Source: Saprospiraceae bacterium
GTDB lineage: Bacteria > Bacteroidota > Bacteroidia > Chitinophagales > Saprospiraceae
Length of the DNA: 35,846 bases
Assembly: GCA_020630735.1 (NCBI GenBank)
Contig: JAHDIP010000039.1
Coordinates: 1 to 35,846, forward strand
Direction of reading: 5' to 3'
Shown here: piece by piece, positions 10,984 to 35,453 of the stretch
How positions within the stretch are numbered: position 1 is the stretch's first letter
Layout: each line of letters starts with the position of its first letter
Program-made: the position numbers and the translations under genes
The notes under the pieces: generated by a model
What the model saw: the letters and a program-made list of their open reading frames with translations, nothing else
The model's database searches: none
What the model was told of the DNA's origin: nothing

Positions 10984-10988
10984 TTGTC

Positions 10989-11092
10989 TATACCTACTGG
11001 TATTCGGTTTTCGGATTATCATGGGTAGCTAAGGTTTAATTTTCAGTAGTTTTAATCGTTTGGCAATCCGAAAACTTTTTGATTTCTATTTA
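10989..11092 (+). repeat. interspersed ~105-bp repeat, copy A
   Basis: This is one of four copies of the same intergenic element (others at 12841, 28595 and 34968). It begins TATACCTACTGGTATTCGG and ends near GATTTCTATTTATA. Inside, GTTTTCGGATT (11007-11017) and AATCCGAAAAC (11065-11075) form a perfect 11-bp inverted repeat, the best long-range stem of the four copies. It starts 5 bases after the DUF4249 stop codon. Confidence 0.85.
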
Positions 11093-12643: not shown

Positions 12644-12769
12644 AAGTAAGCTAATTATTGTTTAAGCCTGCAAATTACTAGCTTCATGTTAGTATTACAA
12701 CTATATCTTATATAATTGTCATTATTTTCAAAAATATTAAAGAATAAGCCAAAAAATAGAATTATTTTA

Positions 12770-12777
12770 TATATTTG
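12770..12777 (+). promoter_or_regulatory. -7 promoter box upstream of the RiPP-type operon
   Basis: TATATTTG followed by CAC is a full match to TAnnTTTG; no TTG box is visible at the expected distance upstream. The start point would be near 12784, giving either a near-leaderless 29-codon ORF or an operon leader of about 390 bases that contains repeat copy B. Confidence 0.55.
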
Positions 12778-12787
12778 CACACTTCCT

Positions 12788-12877
12788 ATGAATGTACTTA
12801 AAACGAAAAAAATTAGTCAAAAAGACAATAACTATGAGGATATACCTACCGGTATTCGGTTTAAGGATCATCGTTAG
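12788..12877 (+). CDS. 29-codon ORF running into repeat B; possible peptide precursor or leader peptide
   Basis: An ATG about 10 bases after a full -7 box opens a 29-residue ORF. The first 18 codons (MNVLKTKKISQKDNNYED) are unique sequence, rich in Lys, like the start of many leader peptides. The remaining codons (IPTGIRFKDHR) come from the 5' end of repeat copy B. There is no Gly-Gly cleavage site for a C39 peptidase and no Cys; Ser10, Thr6 and Thr21 are the only Ser/Thr. It could be a precursor truncated by the repeat, a regulatory leader peptide, or chance. It is reported because it is the only promoter-associated small ORF next to the exporter operon. Confidence 0.2.
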   Translation: MNVLKTKKISQKDNNYEDIPTGIRFKDHR

Positions 12878-12945
12878 TAACTATCGTTTGATTTTCAGGT
12901 ACTTTGAACGTTTGACAATCCGAAAACTACTTTGGTTTCAGTATA
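12841..12945 (+). repeat. interspersed ~105-bp repeat, copy B
   Basis: It runs from TATACCTACCGGTATTCGG to TTTGGTTTCAGTATA, 105 bp. ACCG and CGGT around the GTATT loop make a perfect 4-bp hairpin at the left end. The long-range stem seen in copy A is imperfect here (GTTTAAGGAT against ATCCGAAAAC). It lies in the likely 5' leader of the exporter operon. Confidence 0.85.
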
Positions 12946-13171
12946 ACATACGTTTCTATTGACCAATCACCCATTTAGTAAGGCCTTACGGTTTGACTTT
13001 AGAAGAAAAAGAAATGCCATTAAATACATATTAAAAAATATTGGCATATTTTTTGATCATTAAGTCTTGGTATTCCTAATATCATAGGAAAGCTATGTCT
13101 ACGATGTACTAAACTACTACCCATTTTTTCGATCTCATTTAAAACTACACAAAAGGATTAAGTAATAAAAT

Positions 13172-15364
13172 ATGTCCAAAAGTTTTCCTATTTACAAACA
13201 ATTGGATGAAATGGACTGCGGGGCCTCCTGTCTTCGTATGATTGCCGATCATTATGGGCGCTATTATTCTCTTGAATATTTGCGGGAAATAACCTATGTA
13301 GGTAGAGAAGGTGTTTCGATGCTAGGACTGAGCGATGGAGCTGAAGCTATAGGTTTGCGTACATTGGCAGTAAGAACAACTTATGAACGACTGGTTAAAG
13401 ATTTTCCCTTACCTTGTATTGCATATTGGAAGCAATCCCATTTTTTAGTCGTATACAAGATTACAGATAAACATGTTTGGATTGCAGATCCTGCCGCTGG
13501 AAAGTTTAAATTGACCAAAGAAGAATTTCTATCGTCGTGGGTTGTTGGAAAAAATGATAAAGAAGACGAAATAGGCTATTTACTTTTAGTAGAAACTACG
13601 CCGAGTTTTTTTGAACAAGCAGGAGAAGTAGTCAATAAAAAAGGTTTTTCTTATTTATTTTCCTACATCAAAAAGTATCCTAAATTATTGTTCCAATTAT
13701 TTTTAGGTTTGTTTGTCGGTAGTATTTTACAAATTCTCTTTCCACTCCTTACGCAAGCAATTGTAGATATCGGAATAACAAACCAGGATATTAATTTTAT
13801 CTACCTAATTTTAATCGCTCAGTTAATTTTATTTATTAGCCAAACATTTATTGAGATTTTTCGGTCGTGGATATTTTTACATATCGGTATTCGAGTCAAT
13901 ATTAATTTGATTTCTGATTTTTTACTAAAAATTATGAAATTACCTATCCGCTATTTTAATACTAGAGTAACGGGAGATATCCTACAGCGTATAGCGGATA
14001 ATCAGCGAATTGAAGAATTTTTAACTTCGGCGACATTGCCTACCTTGTTTTCTGTATTTAACTTTTTTGTATTTAGCGGTATTCTAGCTTACTATAGTTA
14101 TTTGATGTTTTTGATTTTTGTTACTGCAACTTTTTTTTACATTCTTTGGATAATCTTTTTCTTAAAAAAGAGAAAAGAAATTGACTACCGTCGCTTTGAT
14201 CAATTATCAGAAAACCAAACAACTTTGATGCAGCTAGTAAATGGTATGCAGGAAATTAAAATTCATAATGCAGAAAAACAAAAACGTTGGGTTTGGGAAC
14301 GTATTCAAGCGAGAATGTACAAGGTGAGTATGCAGTATTTACAAATAGACCAATGGCAACGTTCGGGAGCGTCTTTTATAAATGAAACCAAAAATATTTT
14401 AATCTCCTTCATTGCTGCTAAAGGAGTTATTGATGGTACGATGACCTTGGGAATGATGGTTGCAGTACAATATATCATTGGTCAAATGAATGGACCAATC
14501 GAAAAATTAGTGCTCTTTTTTAGGACAGCTCAAGATGCAAAAATTAGCCTTGAGCGTATGAACGAAATTCACTTGAGAGAGGATGAAGAAGATCCTTCGA
14601 CGAAAATAAAAGAACTTCCAGAAAATGGAGACTTGAAATTATCAAATGTTTCTTTTCAATACAGCGGTCCCAATTCACCTATCATTTTGAATAATATAAA
14701 TGTAGTTATTCCTAAAGGAAAAACTACAGCTATCGTTGGACACAGCGGTAGCGGTAAAACGACTCTTCTAAAATTGCTGCTAAATTTTTACGCACCAACC
14801 GCAGGAACTATCGAAGTCGGAGATATTAATTTGAATGATTTGCAGTATCGAGCTTGGCGAAAAAAATGTGGCGTCGTCATGCAAGAAGGATTTATTTTTT
14901 CTGATACGATTGCCAATAATATTGCCTTAGGAGCAGAGGAAATTGATAAAGACAAACTGGTAAAGGCCGTAAAAATTGCAAATGCTCAAAATTTTATTGA
15001 CTCTTTACCTTTAGGGTATAATACAAAAATTGGTGATGAAGGAATTGATTTGTCGCAAGGACAAAAGCAACGTTTGCTGATAGCAAGGGCTGTTTATAAA
15101 AATCCTGATTATATCTTTTTTGATGAAGCAACGAATGCTTTGGATGCTTATAATGAAATGATCATTCTCGACAATCTAGAAGAGGTTCTAGATCAAAAAA
15201 CGGTTGTCATTGTCGCTCACCGTTTGAGTACTGTCAGTATTGCCGACAATATTATTGTGCTAGAACAAGGAGAAGTTATTGAACAAGGAACACATGAAGA
15301 ATTAATTGAACTGAAAGGATTTTATTATTATTTAGTTAAAAATCAATTAGAGTTAGGTCGCTAA
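13172..15364 (+). CDS. C39-peptidase ABC exporter (PCAT-type)
   Basis: The 730-residue protein cleaves leader peptides and exports the product. An N-terminal C39 cysteine peptidase (about 1-130) has all key residues: Gln10, Cys16 in DCGASC, His90 in SHFLVVY and Asp106 in ADP. Six membrane helices follow (about 168-430), then an ATPase with Walker A GHSGSGKTT (523-531), signature LSQGQ (627-631), Walker B IFFDE and a downstream His switch (VIVAHRLS). Intact C39 residues mean it should process a substrate with a Gly-Gly-type leader. The next gene starts directly after the stop, so it is in one operon with the HlyD-like and LanB-like genes. The system looks like a bacteriocin/RiPP secretion unit. 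Confidence 0.95.
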   Translation: MSKSFPIYKQLDEMDCGASCLRMIADHYGRYYSLEYLREITYVGREGVSMLGLSDGAEAIGLRTLAVRTTYERLVKDFPLPCIAYWKQSHFLVVYKITDKHVWIADPAAGKFKLTKEEFLSSWVVGKNDKEDEIGYLLLVETTPSFFEQAGEVVNKKGFSYLFSYIKKYPKLLFQLFLGLFVGSILQILFPLLTQAIVDIGITNQDINFIYLILIAQLILFISQTFIEIFRSWIFLHIGIRVNINLISDFLLKIMKLPIRYFNTRVTGDILQRIADNQRIEEFLTSATLPTLFSVFNFFVFSGILAYYSYLMFLIFVTATFFYILWIIFFLKKRKEIDYRRFDQLSENQTTLMQLVNGMQEIKIHNAEKQKRWVWERIQARMYKVSMQYLQIDQWQRSGASFINETKNILISFIAAKGVIDGTMTLGMMVAVQYIIGQMNGPIEKLVLFFRTAQDAKISLERMNEIHLREDEEDPSTKIKELPENGDLKLSNVSFQYSGPNSPIILNNINVVIPKGKTTAIVGHSGSGKTTLLKLLLNFYAPTAGTIEVGDINLNDLQYRAWRKKCGVVMQEGFIFSDTIANNIALGAEEIDKDKLVKAVKIANAQNFIDSLPLGYNTKIGDEGIDLSQGQKQRLLIARAVYKNPDYIFFDEATNALDAYNEMIILDNLEEVLDQKTVVIVAHRLSTVSIADNIIVLEQGEVIEQGTHEELIELKGFYYYLVKNQLELGR

Positions 15365-16666
15365 ATGGCAGAAGAAGATTATATAGAACTTCGTAGCGAA
15401 GATGTACAAGAAATAATGGGAAGACCTCCAAGCTGGATCGTGCGATGGGGGACAGTCCTTATATTTTTTATTTTATGCATTCTTATTTATTTGAGTTATA
15501 TCATCAAATATCCAGATAAAATTTCTGAATCGATTACCATCACTACTTCTGTACCTCCTATAAAGGTAGTGTCTCATCTTGATGGCTATATAGAAGATGT
15601 GCTGGTAAAAGAAAATCAGATCGTTGTTCAAGATGAAGTATTATTGATTGTCAAAAATGATGCTGAGTACGAAGAAATGATGCTTTTAAGCAGTTTAGTT
15701 GATTCGTTGATATTGCAAGAAGAAGTACAAAGTGCATATAGTTATATTAAATTTCCGAGAGGACTAATACTTGGCGATGTTCAATCTTCTTATGAACGTT
15801 TTCTAAAAGACTTAGAAGAATATAATTTTAATCGAAATGATAAATATGGTGAGGCTAAGAGTGAAGATATTCGAAATAAAATAATTAGTAAGCAGGAAGA
15901 AATTATCTGGGAAGAAAAACGCTTAGAAAAAGCTAAAGAAACATTAGGCTTTGCTAAAAAGAATTTTCAAACGCAGCGTAAAGCCTACGAGGACAAAAAA
16001 ATTACTTTAGCAGGTCTTCAACAGTCTAAGTTAGCCGAAAATAATGCTGCACAAGCTGTGCTGAATATAGAAGTAAGCATAAAGAAAATTCTTGCGGATA
16101 TAAAAACACTCAATCGCCAAATTCCTTTAGTTACTGGTGGTATAGTTAAGAGTAATACCGAAAAATTTAATAATGTTAAAGGAAGACTTAATACCTTAAA
16201 GGCTACTATCTTAGATTGGAAAAAACGAAACCTCATCCGCTCTCCTTCTGATGGAAAAGTACAGTTTTTTACAAATGGAGAACCCGACAAAATTTTACTA
16301 AAACCAGGTACTGAAATCATGGCGATTGTGCCTCATTTAGATAAGCAGAAAGTAGGGAAAATGGCACTCACTTTCGATGATTTTGGTAAAGTCTTAGAGG
16401 GGCAACGAGTCATAATCAAGTTTGCTGCATACCCACATCAAGACTTTGGTGTAGTAGAAGGAAAGATAGCGCATAAAGCGAGTTTGCCTCAAGGAAATAA
16501 GTATATGGTTGAAATCGAATTACCTAATGGCCTTCTCTCTAGTCACGGAAAAGAGCTAACCTTCGAACAGCAAATGAATGGTATTGCTGAAATCATCACA
16601 GAAGAACATCGTTTCATCACCAGAATTTTTGATAAATTTACATCATTCTTTAATGATGATGAGTAG
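15365..16666 (+). CDS. HlyD-family periplasmic adaptor of the exporter
   Basis: The 433-residue protein has a short cytoplasmic start, one membrane helix (about 28-47), a lipoyl-like half (VVSHLDGYIEDVLVKENQIV), a long coiled-coil hairpin (about 150-290), the second lipoyl half (RNLIRSPSDGKVQFF) and a beta-barrel end. This is the layout of membrane fusion proteins that link a C39 ABC exporter to an outer-membrane channel. The start codon follows the exporter stop with no gap. No TolC-like gene is in the window, so the channel must be encoded elsewhere. The gap to the LanB-like gene is 5 bases, so all three proteins are co-expressed. Confidence 0.92.
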   Translation: MAEEDYIELRSEDVQEIMGRPPSWIVRWGTVLIFFILCILIYLSYIIKYPDKISESITITTSVPPIKVVSHLDGYIEDVLVKENQIVVQDEVLLIVKNDAEYEEMMLLSSLVDSLILQEEVQSAYSYIKFPRGLILGDVQSSYERFLKDLEEYNFNRNDKYGEAKSEDIRNKIISKQEEIIWEEKRLEKAKETLGFAKKNFQTQRKAYEDKKITLAGLQQSKLAENNAAQAVLNIEVSIKKILADIKTLNRQIPLVTGGIVKSNTEKFNNVKGRLNTLKATILDWKKRNLIRSPSDGKVQFFTNGEPDKILLKPGTEIMAIVPHLDKQKVGKMALTFDDFGKVLEGQRVIIKFAAYPHQDFGVVEGKIAHKASLPQGNKYMVEIELPNGLLSSHGKELTFEQQMNGIAEIITEEHRFITRIFDKFTSFFNDDE

Positions 16667-16671
16667 TACTT

Positions 16672-19242
16672 ATGTCAAACCAACCTGATCCTTCCGAAAT
16701 TTTTTCGATAATTCTGATTCGCTCAGGCGGCTTGTTATTTTACTCAGTTAAAGATTTCTTTACAGTAAAAAACGAAAATTACAATCAACTTTTAGAGCAA
16801 TTTTACGAATTGCTTAAGGAAAAAGAAATCCTATTATTAGCACTCTCAAAAGATGGAGTAGGGGAGCGAAAAGCATTTCAGCAGTATTGCAAAAAACTCT
16901 TCAATAATATCCAATATGATAAAAAGAGGATACTACCGAAAAAGGAATACGAAACGACATCTCAAGCAGAAGTAGACCTCGTTCTTGCCATCAAACAAAC
17001 AATAAAAAAGTACCAAGACAACCAAGCTACTTTTCAAATACAACAATCTATTTTTAAAGCTGCCTTTGAAGCAGAACTTAGTCGAATGCGATCTATTTTA
17101 AAAGCTTTTTCTAAAGAAGAAGTCTTACGCAAAGGATTGATACTTTCTTCTCATTCTTTCATGCAACGCTTGGAAAATTATAAGGCAAAAGCCGCATCAT
17201 CTTTTACAAAAAAAGAGCTACAAACAGAACGCACCTTAGTAGAATATCTAAGTCGAATTACAACGAAGACTTCTCCCTTTAGTACATTTACTAGTTTATC
17301 TGTTTTGGACTTTGAAAGAGAAAAAAATCAAAACCTTGTCAGTAAATCATCTGTACAATTGAATAGTCACATTCTTGCTTATTTTCAAGCCTGTTTATTA
17401 TTGCATCCGCCGTTTTTCAGACAACTTAAACTGCGTATTAATCCGACATTATCTTTTACTGAAACAACATTTTCTTTCTTAAAAAATCAAAAAAATATAG
17501 AGTCCATATCTAGTATAGAAAAAGATGCAGTACTGGAATTGATTGCAACTGAATTTCAGGAGGGAAAGATTGCTTTTTCAACGTTAATGTCTACTTTACT
17601 AGAAGTCATAGATGCTGATGAAGCAAGCTTAGAAGTTTATCTATTAAATCTTATTCAAGAAGGTTTTTTAGAATGGGATTGGGACTTTTCGATAATGGAC
17701 GATTGGCTTGAAGAGTTGATCGCTTTAACATTAAAAATAAAAGAGGATACAATACTAAAATCATTTACTACCATTTTATTAGCCTTACAAAAAGACATCA
17801 AAGCTTTCACTATTGCAAATGCAAGCACAAGAAAACAAATATTACTAAAGTCTTACATGGCATTGCAGAAATGCTCTAAGTTATTTCCTAGCACGCTAGC
17901 TTTTAAGATAAGTATTGAAAATATTTTTTATGAAGATGTACGAGATGATTATTCTATTGAATTCCCAAAAAAGAATATTGAATCAATAATGCGTTCTTTT
18001 TCTTCTTTTTTACAAGCTACTCATTCTATTCAATATAGTGTGTTGAAAATGGAATTGCTTGCTTTTTATAAGGCAAACTACAAAGACAAAAAAGTAAACC
18101 TTCTTGAATTCTATGAGCAGTTTTATAAAAATAAATCCAATATAACTTTACCTAAAAATAACGACTATGTTGCAATCTTAGAAAAATGGAAGGTGGCTTT
18201 ACAAGAAAATTATCAGCTCAATAAAAAACATTGTTTAAACTTGTCTTCTGATGTACTTCAAAAAATAGCTGCTGAAATTACCTCCGATAAAAAAGAAAAA
18301 AAAACGAGCAATTCTTTTGCTGCTTTTCTTCAAGTTTATTCAGCTAATAATTCTTTAAAAGCGACTCTAAATGCTTCGGCTCCTGGCTTTGGCAAAATGA
18401 TGGGACGTTTTATCTCGTTGTTTCCTGAAGTAGAATTACAGGAACGCATTTTGGAAAGAAATAAAACTTTACAACCTGAAAATGAAATTTGGGTGGAGAA
18501 TATTGATGCTTCTTTTGCGAATGCTAATATTCATCCTCCTTTGTTAGAAACAGAAATAGATACATCGAATGGTCAACACCGATTAAAAGAATCTAATCGG
18601 ATATCATTAAATGATTTAGTTGTAAGTTTTGATAAAGAAGAGAAAGCTTTAATTTTAATAGACAAAAAAACGAAAAAAAGGATACGTGTTTTTGATTTTG
18701 GGTTTGAATTGCGAAGCTACCGTTCTCCTATGTATCAGATGCTTTCTTGTTTTGCAAGTCCTCGAATTGTACATCAGCCTTTTTTGAAAATTGTAAATCA
18801 GGTATTTGATCAAAAAAGGTCAAATGGAATAATTGTAAGACCTAGAATAGAATTGGATGGGCATTTGATTCTACAACGTAAAACGTGGTTTATACCTAAA
18901 GATAAATTACCAATACCCTTTGCAAAAGAAGAAAAAGCTGCTTATTTTTTTAGATTGCTAAAATGGCAAAAAGAAAAAGGCTTGCCACAAGTTGTATATA
19001 TAAAAATGCCAAAAGAGCATTCCTCTCTATCTCAACATACAAATTATAAACAAGAAGCTTTCAAACCTCAATATATCGACTTTGAGCATCCACTGTTGAT
19101 ACAATTGTTTGCAAAGATTGCTCGTAAAGCAAAAAAGTATTTAATGATCGAAGAAGCATTGCCAACACCATCTCAGTATATAGGCGGTCGAGTTTCAGAG
19201 TTAGTAGTGCAGGTTTGTGTTTCTAAAGAATTAAGTACCTAA
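16672..19242 (+). CDS. stand-alone LanB N-terminal (lantibiotic dehydratase) protein, possible peptide aminoacyl-tRNA ligase
   Basis: The 856-residue protein resembles the glutamylation part of class I lantibiotic dehydratases (Lant_dehydr_N). Key marks are EYLSRITTKTSPFSTF at 191-206, matching the family R-xxx-R-x-T-P-F pattern with Lys199 at the second Arg position, and a C-terminal end (FEHPLLIQLF, then VSELVVQVCV) that coincides with the end of that domain. The ~300-residue elimination domain (SpaB_C) is missing, and no gene for it or for a LanC cyclase is near. Full LanB enzymes transfer Glu from Glu-tRNA to Ser/Thr; short relatives without the elimination domain include peptide aminoacyl-tRNA ligases, which add an amino acid to a scaffold peptide. 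Which reaction this enzyme performs cannot be told from sequence. It is third in the operon after the exporter and adaptor. Confidence 0.8.
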   Translation: MSNQPDPSEIFSIILIRSGGLLFYSVKDFFTVKNENYNQLLEQFYELLKEKEILLLALSKDGVGERKAFQQYCKKLFNNIQYDKKRILPKKEYETTSQAEVDLVLAIKQTIKKYQDNQATFQIQQSIFKAAFEAELSRMRSILKAFSKEEVLRKGLILSSHSFMQRLENYKAKAASSFTKKELQTERTLVEYLSRITTKTSPFSTFTSLSVLDFEREKNQNLVSKSSVQLNSHILAYFQACLLLHPPFFRQLKLRINPTLSFTETTFSFLKNQKNIESISSIEKDAVLELIATEFQEGKIAFSTLMSTLLEVIDADEASLEVYLLNLIQEGFLEWDWDFSIMDDWLEELIALTLKIKEDTILKSFTTILLALQKDIKAFTIANASTRKQILLKSYMALQKCSKLFPSTLAFKISIENIFYEDVRDDYSIEFPKKNIESIMRSFSSFLQATHSIQYSVLKMELLAFYKANYKDKKVNLLEFYEQFYKNKSNITLPKNNDYVAILEKWKVALQENYQLNKKHCLNLSSDVLQKIAAEITSDKKEKKTSNSFAAFLQVYSANNSLKATLNASAPGFGKMMGRFISLFPEVELQERILERNKTLQPENEIWVENIDASFANANIHPPLLETEIDTSNGQHRLKESNRISLNDLVVSFDKEEKALILIDKKTKKRIRVFDFGFELRSYRSPMYQMLSCFASPRIVHQPFLKIVNQVFDQKRSNGIIVRPRIELDGHLILQRKTWFIPKDKLPIPFAKEEKAAYFFRLLKWQKEKGLPQVVYIKMPKEHSSLSQHTNYKQEAFKPQYIDFEHPLLIQLFAKIARKAKKYLMIEEALPTPSQYIGGRVSELVVQVCVSKELST

Positions 19243-19326: not shown

Positions 19327-20406
19327 TTATGTTTTTATTTTTTCTAAAGCTACGCTCATTCGCAAACTTATGCTTTGAAAGTTGTTTTTTTCGGTAGGAA
19401 AAGAGGGATGAATATTATTATAAAAATATTGAGGTAGATAGCAATAATCAAAGTAAAAATTCATAGATCGTTGTTTGTTCATAAATTCATTAACTGGAAG
19501 TTTAAAGCCTAGGCCATATGTAAAGCCTCTTCGATGTGGCAAGCTATCATCACTTGGGAAATTTACATTCCAATACACAAATCCTAGGCGTAACGATAGA
19601 TAATCTAGAATCGTTAATTCATTTCCTAGACTAAATTTAAAAAAAGCATATTCCTCATACTCATCTTTCATTTCAGAAAGGTCGTTCGTTATTTCTACAG
19701 TCGAAAGTATTCTAAACAACCTATACTTGTCAAAAATTACTTGATTAGAAAAAAGGTGCAAGCTACTTCCTAATGTGAAATTGACAGCTGAAGTTTCACT
19801 TAGTAAAAAGTGGTTGGCTATAGATCGTTGCCAATTGGCCTTAAAGACAGTAGTAAAAAAGTTTCGTTCATTGTTTAGGAAAAATTTGCCTGAAAAACCA
19901 ATGTGATTATCTAACCCTAATGGCTGATATCCAGATGGAAATGACTCAAAAAATCCAAAAACAAGATTTCTTGAATAGAGATATGAAGAACCTAAACCTA
20001 AAAAAGTATGTTTACTAAGCTTAACACCAAGAGCTAGTGTTGCAGATTCTTGATAAGGAATTTCTTTGATGTTATTATTATAATCATTTCTGAAATACCG
20101 ATAAGCCAATCCAATTCTGAACCATTTATTGACTTTGGTTCCTAAAGCAATAAAAGCTAAATTGGAAAATGGATCACTACCAAAAGGACTTGAGTTACAA
20201 ATACTTAATTGCAAGTCCTCAAAATAGGCTGTTGTTAATGGATTGAAGATAATTGAATTAATATCACCTTCTAAACCAGTATGAGATCGACCTAGAGCTT
20301 CAGCCCTTGGGTTGTGTTGATATCGATAGTTAATTGAATTGGCAAATTGACTATAAGAAATAGAGGCATTTATCAAAAAGAATAAAAGAATACTAATACG
20401 TTTCAT
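19327..20406 (-). CDS. outer-membrane beta-barrel protein, paralogue 1
   Basis: The 359-residue protein has a signal peptide (MKRISILLFFLINASISYSQ) and then a pattern of alternating beta strands ending in an aromatic-rich segment, consistent with an outer-membrane barrel. The start MKRIS at 20406 is preferred over an ATG 54 bases upstream because it begins a clean signal peptide. The N-terminal motif PRAEALGRSHTGLEGDINSI recalls the RA-x-MG-x-A-hTGL pattern of PorV/FadL-like proteins. It is a close paralogue of the next gene, so the pair arose by tandem duplication. Function is unknown; it converges on the RiPP-type operon and is not part of it. Confidence 0.75.
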   Translation of the reverse strand: MKRISILLFFLINASISYSQFANSINYRYQHNPRAEALGRSHTGLEGDINSIIFNPLTTAYFEDLQLSICNSSPFGSDPFSNLAFIALGTKVNKWFRIGLAYRYFRNDYNNNIKEIPYQESATLALGVKLSKHTFLGLGSSYLYSRNLVFGFFESFPSGYQPLGLDNHIGFSGKFFLNNERNFFTTVFKANWQRSIANHFLLSETSAVNFTLGSSLHLFSNQVIFDKYRLFRILSTVEITNDLSEMKDEYEEYAFFKFSLGNELTILDYLSLRLGFVYWNVNFPSDDSLPHRRGFTYGLGFKLPVNEFMNKQRSMNFYFDYCYLPQYFYNNIHPSFPTEKNNFQSISLRMSVALEKIKT

Positions 20407-20567
20407 GTGGCTAATTTTTTTGTTGTAAGAATAGACTAAAAAAAGGATCAATTTAATCATCCCTCTATGTGCTTGCCTGTTGGCAAACTGTTTTTTAGAC
20501 TACTTGAGTAAGGACTTTTCATAGTTTACATTTCAAAGCTCTCTTTTAAAACAACTTCAGGGAGAAA

Positions 20568-21698
20568 TTATTTTATCAAATCTATATTTTGATCATTTTT
20601 AGATTTATTCTTTTCCAAATGTTTAAGCCCTACACTCATTCTTATACTTATGCTCTGGAAATTATGTTCCACACGATCGGGAGAATTAATTCTAATATTA
20701 TTATAATAATGCTGAGGCAAATAACAATAATCTAGATAAAAATGTAAGGGGCGCTTTTGGTTAAGAAATGGATGAATAGGTATTTTGAATCCTAGGCCAT
20801 ACGTAAAGCCCGATCTTTTTGGGTTTACTTGGTCATTGTTAGGAAATTGAACATTCCAAAAAACATAACCAAGCCTTAACGAGAGAAAATCAAGGAACGT
20901 TAATTCATTTCCAACACTAGCTCTGAAAAACAATGTTCTTTTCCTTCGGTATAATACACCTGACATATTTCTATAAAGCTCCAAACTAGAAATCAATTTG
21001 AAAAGCCTGTATTTGTTAAGAACCATTTTTTGGGGCATTAGATGGAAACTAGTCCCTAAAGTAATTGGAACAGACTTCGGTATTTTGGCACTTTGGTTTT
21101 CAAAATAATAATTGTAGCTAGCTCTAAAAGTGGCTGTCATAAAATGACGATTATTTTTTAAGTAATGTTTACTTGATACCCCAAAATGATTTTCTAAATT
21201 TTTTTCAAAAATTCCAAAATCAATATTCCCAAAAAAGTTATCAATAATCGATCTAGAATAGATGAAGTTTGAGCTTAGACCTATGGCAAAATTCTTGCTT
21301 GGTTTAAAACCAAGAGACAGTGTTGTTGATTCTCTTAAGGGGATATATTCTATCTCATCTTGGTTATAATATTTGCGTAATTGAAAATGATAGGCTAGAC
21401 CAATTTTGAACCAATTATTTACATTTGTTCCTAAAGAAATAAAATTTAACCTTGAATCAGTTGAAAAAGCATCTGGTGACGATGTGTAGATACTCCATTG
21501 CAAATCATCGAGATAAGCTACTGTTAATGGATTGTATAAAATAGAGTTGATGTCTCCTTCAAGCCCTGTATGTAACCTTCCCATGGCTTCAGCTCTTGGG
21601 GGCTGTTGGTGCGTAGAAAAATAGGCGTTATAGGTTTGAGAATGGATCAATGTATCACATACCAAAAAAATAATGAAGGCAAAGGTGATTTTTTTCAT
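20568..21698 (-). CDS. outer-membrane beta-barrel protein, paralogue 2
   Basis: The 376-residue protein has a signal peptide (to about HSQ21) and the same plan as its neighbour: PRAEAMGRLHTGLEGDINSI at the N-terminus, NNWFKIGLAYHF, SLRLGYVFWNVQFPN, and a C-terminal DYCYLPQ-x-YYNNI motif followed by FQSISIRMSVGL. These strings recur in paralogue 1 with few changes, so both should fold and probably act alike. Paralogue 2 carries a short Lys/Asn/Asp tail absent from paralogue 1. A 23-bp inverted repeat lies between its start and the FMN reductase gene upstream. No function can be assigned beyond a surface location. Confidence 0.75.
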   Translation of the reverse strand: MKKITFAFIIFLVCDTLIHSQTYNAYFSTHQQPPRAEAMGRLHTGLEGDINSILYNPLTVAYLDDLQWSIYTSSPDAFSTDSRLNFISLGTNVNNWFKIGLAYHFQLRKYYNQDEIEYIPLRESTTLSLGFKPSKNFAIGLSSNFIYSRSIIDNFFGNIDFGIFEKNLENHFGVSSKHYLKNNRHFMTATFRASYNYYFENQSAKIPKSVPITLGTSFHLMPQKMVLNKYRLFKLISSLELYRNMSGVLYRRKRTLFFRASVGNELTFLDFLSLRLGYVFWNVQFPNNDQVNPKRSGFTYGLGFKIPIHPFLNQKRPLHFYLDYCYLPQHYYNNIRINSPDRVEHNFQSISIRMSVGLKHLEKNKSKNDQNIDLIK

Positions 21699-28594: not shown

Positions 28595-28699
28595 TATACA
28601 GAAACCGAAGTGGTTTTTGGATGGCCAAACAACTAAAGCTACAGAAGATCAACCGATAGCTACTAATGAGAACCCTAAAACCGAATACCGATAGGTATA
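28595..28699 (-). repeat. interspersed ~105-bp repeat, copy C
   Basis: On the minus strand it runs from TATACCTATCGGTATTCGG to TTCGGTTTCTGTATA, 105 bp. The left hairpin has a compensating wobble (ATCG with CGGT), the right hairpin is AAACC/GGTTT around a 5-base loop, and the long-range stem pairs GGTTTTAGGGT with ATCCAAAAACC. It is the only copy on the minus strand and sits directly before the CHU_C gene. Confidence 0.85.
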
Positions 28700-34967: not shown

Positions 34968-35059
34968 TAAACCTACCAGTATTCGGTCGTTTTGCTACTG
35001 TTCAATATTCAGTAGCTTTAAACGATAGGTAATCTGAAAACCATTTTGGTTCCAGTATA
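34968..35059 (+). repeat. interspersed repeat, copy D (internal deletion)
   Basis: It runs from TAAACCTACCAGTATTCGG to TTTTGGTTCCAGTATA, 92 bp. It matches copies A-C at both ends but lacks about 12 bases after the left hairpin, which removes one arm of the long-range stem. The right hairpin (AACCA with TGGTT) is kept. Confidence 0.75.
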
Positions 35060-35453
35060 TACTGAACATGGAAATTCTAATCAACATTCCAACATAGTAA
35101 GTCGATGATGAAAAGAATTTACTATTGTATTGGGTATGGAGAGTAAATACTTGAGTTAATTCAATTTGAAGATGCTTAAAAGTAATTTGTTCATTGCTAA
35201 ATCTATCGTTACTAACAACAGACTTCAAATACGTAACATGTTCTAAACAATTTCATTGTAAAAATACATCGAAAATTGTTTTTCAAGCTTACTTTAAATT
35301 ATAAATATACGTTTTGTTTGTTAGCTTCCAAAGTCATTTTTTTTTATAGAATAGGGGAGTGAAAAAAAAATATTTTTGTATAGGCATTGATAAAGCTAAT
35401 TGAACTACTATAACTCTGAATTATACATTTCTGGAATCATTACGATTATATAA

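What the first reader, a model, noticed from the sequence alone, without database searches (positions are those of the whole stretch)
13172..19242. RiPP-type operon with C39 exporter, adaptor and a LanB enzyme lacking its elimination domain
The sequence shows three abutting genes: a C39 ABC exporter with intact Cys/His/Asp, an HlyD-family adaptor, and an 856-residue LanB N-terminal protein that stops where that domain normally ends. No SpaB_C elimination gene, LanC cyclase or obvious precursor is nearby. Family knowledge: LanB relatives of this truncated form include peptide aminoacyl-tRNA ligases that add an amino acid to a carrier peptide. Inference: this may be a secreted-peptide system using aminoacyl-tRNA chemistry rather than a lanthipeptide pathway, with its substrate encoded elsewhere or nearly lost.
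Basis: partly seen in the sequence, partly recalled or inferred. Interest (0 to 1): 0.8.

Follow-up and report, generated by a model that had tools for sequence, protein, structure and literature searches.

The report
Scattered peptide-dehydration pathway in Saprospiraceae
The window holds the exporter and one half of a two-part enzyme that probably dehydrates a threonine in small secreted peptides; the other half and the peptides themselves are encoded elsewhere on the chromosome, an unusual scattered version of a pathway that is normally one compact gene cluster.

Summary
The three genes are real: a C39 exporter, an HlyD adaptor and a LanB glutamylation-domain protein without elimination domain. 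The PEARL reading is not supported. The enzyme's nearest solved relative is TbtB, the glutamylation half of a split dehydratase, by sequence and predicted fold, and it lacks the two residues reported as PEARL-specific. The "missing" elimination protein exists: a stand-alone SpaB_C gene beside dnaK on another contig. In 298 genomes of the order, all 14 with a short LanB-N also have a stand-alone SpaB_C and a pinensin-type leader peptide. In the Saprospiraceae carriers these parts are unlinked; on one 3.67-Mb contig they lie 89 kb and 1.5 Mb apart. Two precursor kinds were found: type A (46 assembled; 45 beside one conserved gene; 43 Cys-free cores; all with a Trp/Phe-Thr motif) and type B, a 39-residue peptide ending Gly-Gly-Tyr-Thr-Trp-Val-Gly. 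Eight of the 11 Saprospiraceae genomes surveyed with both halves have no LanC. Best reading: a pinensin-related split dehydratase whose genes are scattered, without LanC, making linear dehydrobutyrine peptides. Co-occurrence, positions and residues are shown here; chemistry, cleavage site and export are inferred.

The parts
13172..15364 (+). C39 peptidase-ABC exporter (730 aa), Cys16/His90/Asp106 present; proposed to cut at the double glycine and export the peptides
   Evidence: Pfam; the triad assignment is recalled family knowledge; export of these peptides is inferred
15365..16666 (+). HlyD-family periplasmic adaptor (433 aa)
   Evidence: PF13437 7.4e-7; TIGR01843 99.9 bits, below its cut-off of 208.65
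16672..19242 (+). LanB glutamylation-domain protein (856 aa), the N half of a split dehydratase (LanB_B type)
   Evidence: PF04738 134 bits; TbtB 6ec7 3.6e-20 by sequence; model pLDDT 83.7, TbtB 1.4e-33 by Foldseek and Z 31.6 by VIA
17245..17280 (+). Glutamylation/tRNA motif Y192-x2-R195-x3-K199-T-S-P (counterparts of NisB Y80, R83, R87 by motif spacing)
   Evidence: R195, K199, P202 invariant and Y192 at least 90% in A2, 24 sequences; NisB Y80/R83/R87 mutants from PMC4341554, passages; TbtB also has the Lys (alignment)
17422..17688 (+). Leader-binding RRE-like subdomain, residues about 251-339
   Evidence: VIA rows over this range: 3dee (Z 10.6), TigE (8.3), MccB (7.6), TbiB1 with leader (7.2), PbtF RRE (6.4); the RRE entries themselves are below Z 8, so suggestive only
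18325..18327 (+). Phe552, at the place of the PEARL-specific Asp542 of TglB
   Evidence: alignment; residue criterion from PMC11117183
18877..18879 (+). Arg736, counterpart of TbtB Arg743 (adenine contact)
   Evidence: invariant in A1 and A2
19198..19206 (+). Glu843-x-Val845: Glu kept, the PEARL Arg803 position is Val
   Evidence: alignment; Glu843 invariant

Best explanation
The operon encodes an exporter (C39-ABC plus HlyD) and the Glu-tRNA-dependent glutamylation half of a split, pinensin-related LanB dehydratase. Its partner, the glutamate-elimination protein (SpaB_C), is encoded alone beside dnaK (C418:4786-5817), and its substrates are two unlinked leader peptides: type A (C28:1605-1793) and type B (39 aa, on C371, ending GG-YTWVG). 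Proposed steps: the RRE-like part of LanB-N binds the pinensin-type leader; the conserved Thr that follows an aromatic residue ([WF]T in type A, YT in type B) is glutamylated; SpaB_C removes glutamate to leave dehydrobutyrine; there is no LanC step, because most cores have no Cys to cyclise; the C39 domain cuts at the double glycine and the ABC/HlyD pair exports a short linear dehydropeptide. Shown here: the parts, their co-occurrence, their unlinked but conserved positions, the residues, the fold. Inferred: the chemistry, the modified Thr, the cut site and the export.
For: (1) Sequence and fold: the two nearest solved chains are split glutamylation proteins, TbtB (3.6e-20) and GodF (5.4e-8); Foldseek TbtB 1.4e-33, VIA Z 31.6. 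(2) PEARL-specific Asp/Arg absent; shared Arg736 and Glu843 kept. (3) Co-occurrence in 298 genomes of the order: 14 have a short LanB-N, 17 a stand-alone SpaB_C, and all 14 are among the 17; all 14 have a pinensin-type leader at E<=0.0035 (a threshold set after seeing the list; 13 are over the curated cut-off), none of the other 284; Fisher 1.9e-21 and 2.7e-24 (genomes are related, so these overstate). (4) Relatives of the protein usually lie in one cluster: 40 of 47 loci hold SpaB_C, 35 LanC, 32 C39; of 37 with at least 2.5 kb on both sides 33 hold SpaB_C, and 3 of the 4 without are Saprospiraceae. (5) SpaB_C of this genome keeps the counterparts of NisB R784, R786, R826 and H961; H961 is essential in NisB (PMC4341554, passages). 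(6) Type A: 45 of 46 have the same ~510-aa gene in the stretch read, 43 of 46 are Cys-free after the double glycine, 46 of 46 have [WF]T. (7) Type B: DNA for GGYTWVG-stop in 4 of 298 genomes, all four with the pair, 0 in the reversed-pattern control, with synonymous third-base differences. (8) LanC absent in 8 of 11 surveyed Saprospiraceae genomes that have both halves.
Against: No biochemical data. The type A leader of this genome scores 22.6 bits (24.6 with neighbours; cut-off 24), that of G134 20.6 (below), and this genome's type A core has one Cys. In G204 and G212 the pair and precursor are kept but SpaB_C lacks the R826 counterpart. The type B double glycine lacks the hydrophobic residues usual before such sites (recalled), and one variant (G377...TDYTWVGKN) has no double glycine, so the cut site is uncertain. 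No C39 exporter lies beside LanB-N in G294 or in any of the seven g26 genomes, in the stretches read; G254 has an ABC/HlyD pair without C39 domain there. This genome has four C39 proteins, so which one exports what is open. The survey is phylogenetically clumped (g26 gives 7 of the 14), and six of the 47 loci appear to be genomes of that same survey. For the extra genomes the presence of LanB-N/SpaB_C was not tested. The PEARL residue test has a single, uncharacterised PEARL-like comparator.
Confidence: 0.7

Rival explanations
1. PEARL: the protein ligates an amino acid from aminoacyl-tRNA to the C-terminus of a carrier peptide; type B, with its near-invariant C-terminus, would be the carrier.
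For: Only the glutamylation-like domain is present; type B has a constant C-terminus and a variable leader, as carrier peptides might.
Against: Asp542 and Arg803 of TglB are Phe552 and Val845 here and not Asp/Arg in the 11 relatives aligned. A stand-alone SpaB_C co-occurs in 14 of 14 genomes, with elimination residues kept in this genome. Most relatives lie beside SpaB_C and LanC. No pearlin-type modifying genes were recognised by eye in the window; none was searched for.
Confidence: 0.06
2. Ordinary lanthipeptide: the LanC of the C363 locus acts in trans and the product is a thioether-bridged peptide.
For: This genome, G134 and G294 have LanC genes; this genome's type A core has one Cys.
Against: LanC on C363 sits with its own fused LanB and two Cys-containing GG-leader peptides; 43 of 46 type A cores and the type B cores read have no Cys; 8 of 11 Saprospiraceae genomes with both halves have no LanC.
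Confidence: 0.08
3. Glutamylation or elimination works differently: LanB-N leaves a stable glutamyl ester, or SpaB_C does another reaction (TbtD-like), so the product is not a simple dehydropeptide.
For: By single-sequence search the best solved match of SpaB_C is TbtD (2.2e-6), just above NisB (2.7e-5).
Against: TbtD equivalog model 63.9 bits against a cut-off of 325; a [4+2] reaction needs two dehydroalanines, which YTWVG cannot give (inference); NisB elimination residues kept.
Confidence: 0.1
4. Decaying remnant of a pinensin cluster without present function.
For: Genes scattered, LanC lost; SpaB_C of G268 and G222, which lack a LanB-N match, has lost catalytic residues.
Against: Frames are open; residues kept in this genome and most carriers; YTWVG unchanged while leader letters and third bases vary. 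G286/G272 precursors differ at 4 of 204 bases (2 synonymous codons, 1 amino-acid change) against 20 of the 400 bases upstream; this last point is weak, as part of that upstream is coding.
Confidence: 0.05

Closest known systems
Pinensin-type class I lanthipeptide clusters of Bacteroidota (NF038180 leader; split LanB)
   Same: Leader family (precursor beside the G257 relative: 48.3 bits), split LanB, C39 exporter and HlyD, relatives of the same LanB-N protein
   Different: Here the genes are at unlinked places, LanC is not part of it, and cores are Cys-free or nearly so
TbtB/TbtC-type split dehydratases of thiopeptides; GodF of goadsporin
   Same: Fold and residues of the glutamylation protein, separate elimination protein
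   Different: No YcaO/TOMM genes or pyridine synthase seen beside it; C39 exporter; double-glycine leader
PEARLs (TglB, AmmB, BhaB)
   Same: Size and missing elimination domain
   Different: Lacks Asp542/Arg803; elimination partner present elsewhere in the genome
Prochlorosins (ProcM with dispersed ProcA genes; recalled, only an abstract start seen in the listing)
   Same: Substrates encoded away from the enzyme
   Different: Class II enzyme with many substrates and thioether rings; here the two halves of the dehydratase are themselves split apart, and one or two substrates were found per genome

Membership tests
Split LanB (LanB_B) glutamylation protein | Lant_dehydr_N without fused Lant_dehydr_C | tested here: met
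Split LanB (LanB_B) glutamylation protein | Arg743 and Glu851 of TbtB kept; Asp542/Arg803 of TglB replaced by non-PEARL residues | tested here: met
   with criterion; Phe and Val rather than the Tyr and Leu named in the paper; the Phe783 counterpart is Tyr776
Split LanB (LanB_B) glutamylation protein | Separate elimination protein encoded in the genome | tested here: met
   C418 SpaB_C, PF14028 136 bits
Split LanB (LanB_B) glutamylation protein | Glu-tRNA-dependent Ser/Thr glutamylation | not testable with these tools
   needs assay
PEARL | ATP-binding Asp542 and Arg803 (TglB numbering) | tested here: not met
   Phe552, Val845
PEARL | ATP- and aminoacyl-tRNA-dependent C-terminal extension | not testable with these tools
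   needs assay
Class I lanthipeptide pathway | LanC with the dehydratase | tested here: not met
   no LanC on this contig; the genome's only LanC match sits with the fused LanB; none in 8 of 11 Saprospiraceae genomes with both halves
Class I lanthipeptide pathway | Cys in the core | tested here: inconclusive
   43 of 46 type A cores lack Cys, but this genome's type A has one; its type B has none
Pinensin-type precursor | NF038180 leader | tested here: met
   C371 25.9 bits; C28 24.6 with neighbours; cut-off 24; marginal for both, supported by conserved position
C39 double-glycine exporter | C39 domain with Cys/His/Asp and ABC | tested here: met
   and direct reading

The most novel reading that the evidence does not exclude
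A RiPP pathway kept as scattered genes in conserved chromosomal places across Saprospiraceae makes LanC-free linear dehydropeptides, among them a secreted pentapeptide Tyr-Dhb-Trp-Val-Gly, nearly constant across several genera, that may act as a signal rather than an antibiotic.
Probability: 0.4. Interest if true: 0.85.

Novelty: new variant of a known kind. Interest (0 to 1): 0.74.

Why it matters
A large genome-mining study of lanthipeptides started from LanC and looked at its neighbours (PMC7268733, passages read); a LanC-free, unclustered system cannot be seen that way. The finding gives candidate substrates and both enzyme halves, so it can be tested in one co-expression experiment. A near-constant five-residue core suggests a fixed receptor or function, unlike the variable cores usual in antimicrobial peptides (the contrast is general knowledge).

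Tried and rejected
PEARL: rejected on residues and partner. Precursor inside the window: ORFs of 50 aa or more between 9 and 25 kb were read; two short ones upstream of the exporter (12716-12962) overlap an interspersed repeat and show no double-glycine leader. Shared promoter motif: a Bacteroidota-type -7/-33 consensus (recalled) was scanned upstream of units in five genomes; only scattered hits, no common pattern. Plasmid collection: 13 records, none covering 80% of the query; five were read as comparators. The C39ABC hit beside type B in G423 is a partial frame of an ABC transporter in which only the ATPase end is seen, so it was not used. A first automatic collection of precursors picked wrong frames for some rows and was replaced.

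Rows dropped before counts: of 60 Saprospiraceae genomes with a leader match at E<=0.05, 46 gave a type A peptide (44 tallied plus G433 and G603, read in the same output); G310 (Cys-rich tandem precursors) and G563 (two Cys, near a contig end) were set aside; G377 and G423 gave type B only; 10 with weak matches (G220, G250, G369, G373, G381, G476, G492, G509, G529, G554) were not read. Type B was read in 10 genomes: 8 with GGYTWVG (G000, G134, G238, G294, G333, G359, G423, G433) and variants G335 (GGFTWIS) and G377 (DYTWVGKN); 7 of the 10 have the PLP-enzyme (PALP) gene in the stretch read. Two LanB-N fragments (L236, L246) were left out of the tree. The tree is a quick one with long branches, and its outgroup was not one side of any branch: it joins the window with L200, L201, L245 (SH-aLRT 95) but does not tell whether the scattered state is derived or old.

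In the alignment the E-F-R of the NRPS-linked comparator stands four columns off the Glu column; I placed it by eye from the preceding motif.

Literature: no paper on such a system was seen in the listings; 'Saprospir' plus 'lanthipeptide' gave one paper (listing only). The pinensin paper (Mohr 2015) was not looked up and is known here only through citations in others.

Full report
OBSERVATION. The three genes are as described: C39-ABC exporter 13172-15364, HlyD adaptor 15365-16666, and an 856-residue LanB N-terminal protein 16672-19242. Pfam gives Peptidase_C39, ABC_membrane, ABC_tran; HlyD_3; and Lant_dehydr_N for the third, with no Lant_dehydr_C.

THE MISSING HALF. The assembly (6.6 Mb, 434 contigs) has two Lant_dehydr_C genes: one fused in a 1062-aa LanB on C363, and one alone (343 aa) on C418:4786-5817, next to a DnaK gene (HSP70 866.7 bits). 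The C363 locus is a separate class I lanthipeptide system with LanC and two Cys-containing peptides with KGG leaders. The lone SpaB_C matches TIGR03891 (89.8 bits over a cut-off of 48.45; TbtD-type pyridine synthase 63.9 against 325) and has the counterparts of NisB R784/R786, R826 and H961. H961 is essential in NisB, while R784A is nearly normal (PMC4341554, passages); the role of R786 and R826 is recalled.

CO-OCCURRENCE. In 298 genomes of the order, 14 match the window LanB-N at E<=0.001 and each has a short LanB-N (in G280 broken over two contig ends); 17 have a stand-alone SpaB_C, including all 14 (in G010 it is cut by contig ends). The three extra are G268, G190 and G222. In the alignment, SpaB_C of G268 has lost the R786 and R826 counterparts, and that of G222 the R786, R826 and H961 counterparts; G190 was not aligned. 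In G257, G168 and G010 the two halves are neighbours with exporter genes, and in G257 and G168 LanC and a leader peptide lie there too. In the Saprospiraceae carriers the halves are unlinked. G272 shows it on one 3.67-Mb contig: LanB-N at 1.516 Mb, SpaB_C at 1.426 Mb, leader peptide at 3.046 Mb, C39 protein at 1.108 Mb. SpaB_C lies beside a DnaK gene in G000, G238, G294 and G134, not in the five g26 stretches checked the same way.

RELATIVES. A scan of named genomes gave 47 loci, mostly Bacteroidota (Chitinophaga, Fulvivirga, Chryseobacterium, Adhaeribacter). Models built here find SpaB_C in 40 of 47, LanC in 35, C39 in 32, HlyD in 27, and a leader by a simple pattern in 17; among 37 loci with at least 2.5 kb on both sides, SpaB_C in 33. 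The four without are L201, L231 and L245 (Saprospiraceae) and L205. So the family's usual home is a compact pinensin-type cluster. The tree joins the window with L200, L201, L245; its deep part is unresolved.

NOT A PEARL. [quoted passage not shown] In the alignment the window has Phe552 and Val845 at the two PEARL places, and Arg736, Tyr776 and Glu843 at the shared ones; a thiomuracin-type split LanB shows Tyr and Leu. An NRPS-linked LanB-like protein has Asp in the first column and an E-F-R at the end, which the program set four columns off. That protein is the only PEARL-like comparator, uncharacterised and at low identity. By sequence the nearest solved chain is TbtB. The predicted model (pLDDT 83.7, pTM 0.82) matches TbtB best (Foldseek 1.4e-33; VIA Z 31.6, rmsd 5.0, 741 aligned), with an RRE-like subdomain at about 251-339.

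SUBSTRATES. The precursor of the clustered relative G257 matches NF038180, the pinensin leader (48.3 bits). The same model finds a leader peptide in all 14 genomes with a short LanB-N (E<=0.0035; 13 over the cut-off) and in none of the other 284 at that threshold; six of those have weak matches at E 0.008-0.044, none over the cut-off. Type A peptides lie convergent with a ~510-aa gene that has only weak TPR matches; a RecX gene is also in the stretch for 25 of 46. A survey of 398 Saprospiraceae genomes gave 60 with matches at E<=0.05, 47 over the cut-off. Of 46 type A peptides assembled, 45 have the ~510-aa gene in the stretch read, 43 have no Cys after the double glycine, and 46 have [WF]T; for the 44 tallied, 10.3 with [WF]T were expected from composition. 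Type B is 39 residues ending GGYTWVG. Its exact coding pattern occurs in 4 of 298 genomes, all four with the enzyme pair, and never in reversed form. G134 keeps YTWVG although its leader is strongly changed. Further genomes give four more GGYTWVG and two variants, GGFTWIS and DYTWVGKN. In G000, G238, G294 and G134 type B sits beside a gene of one PLP-enzyme kind (PALP).

NO CYCLASE. Eleven Saprospiraceae genomes with both halves were searched for LanC: 3 have it (G000, G134, G294) and 8 have none (G238 and seven g26). The three with SpaB_C alone (G268, G190, G222) have none either. Together with Cys-poor cores this points to linear dehydropeptides rather than thioether rings.

MECHANISM. Shown: parts, places, co-occurrence, residues, fold. 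Inferred: leader binding by the RRE-like part, Glu-tRNA-dependent glutamylation of the Thr after an aromatic residue, elimination to dehydrobutyrine by SpaB_C, C39 cleavage at the double glycine, export through ABC/HlyD. Weak points: cut site of type B; no C39 exporter beside LanB-N in G294 or in the seven g26 genomes, where G254 has an ABC/HlyD pair without C39; R826 counterpart lost in G204 and G212; clumped sampling.

NOVELTY. Each part belongs to a known family. What seems new, as far as the listings show, is the arrangement: a conserved, scattered, LanC-free split-LanB system with mostly Cys-free cores. Earlier mining by LanC and its neighbourhood (PMC7268733) could not have seen it. I therefore call it a new variant of a known kind.

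Noticed in passing
window 10987-11084, 12841-12945, 28595-28699 (-), 34992-35063; also C363, C371, C418: A ~100-bp interspersed intergenic repeat; window copies match those on other contigs at 69-84% identity. Not characterised further.
   Followed up: no
L252:4223-4432 (-) (G222): A KGG peptide about 1.2 kb from the type A neighbour gene in a genome without a LanB-N match and with a residue-poor SpaB_C; at the W-T place it reads W-D (..NWDDVEIREEG..). Possibly a precursor that lost its modification site.
   Followed up: partly
G000 C363 (L281:1114-6263): A separate class I lanthipeptide locus: fused LanB, LanC and two peptides with KGG leaders and Cys in the core.
   Followed up: partly
L115:6415-10795 (G134 C38): A second split LanB, scoring like canonical LanBs (PF04738 482 bits), with LanC adjacent, in a genome that also has the scattered system.
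   Followed up: no
window 19327-20460 and 20568-21698 (-): Two similar 377/376-aa proteins in tandem after the operon; the first has no Pfam match at E<=1, the second was not scanned.
   Followed up: no
L118:5385-6282 (G294 C68): Two Cys-rich GG-leader lanthipeptide precursors near a fused LanB in G294.
   Followed up: no
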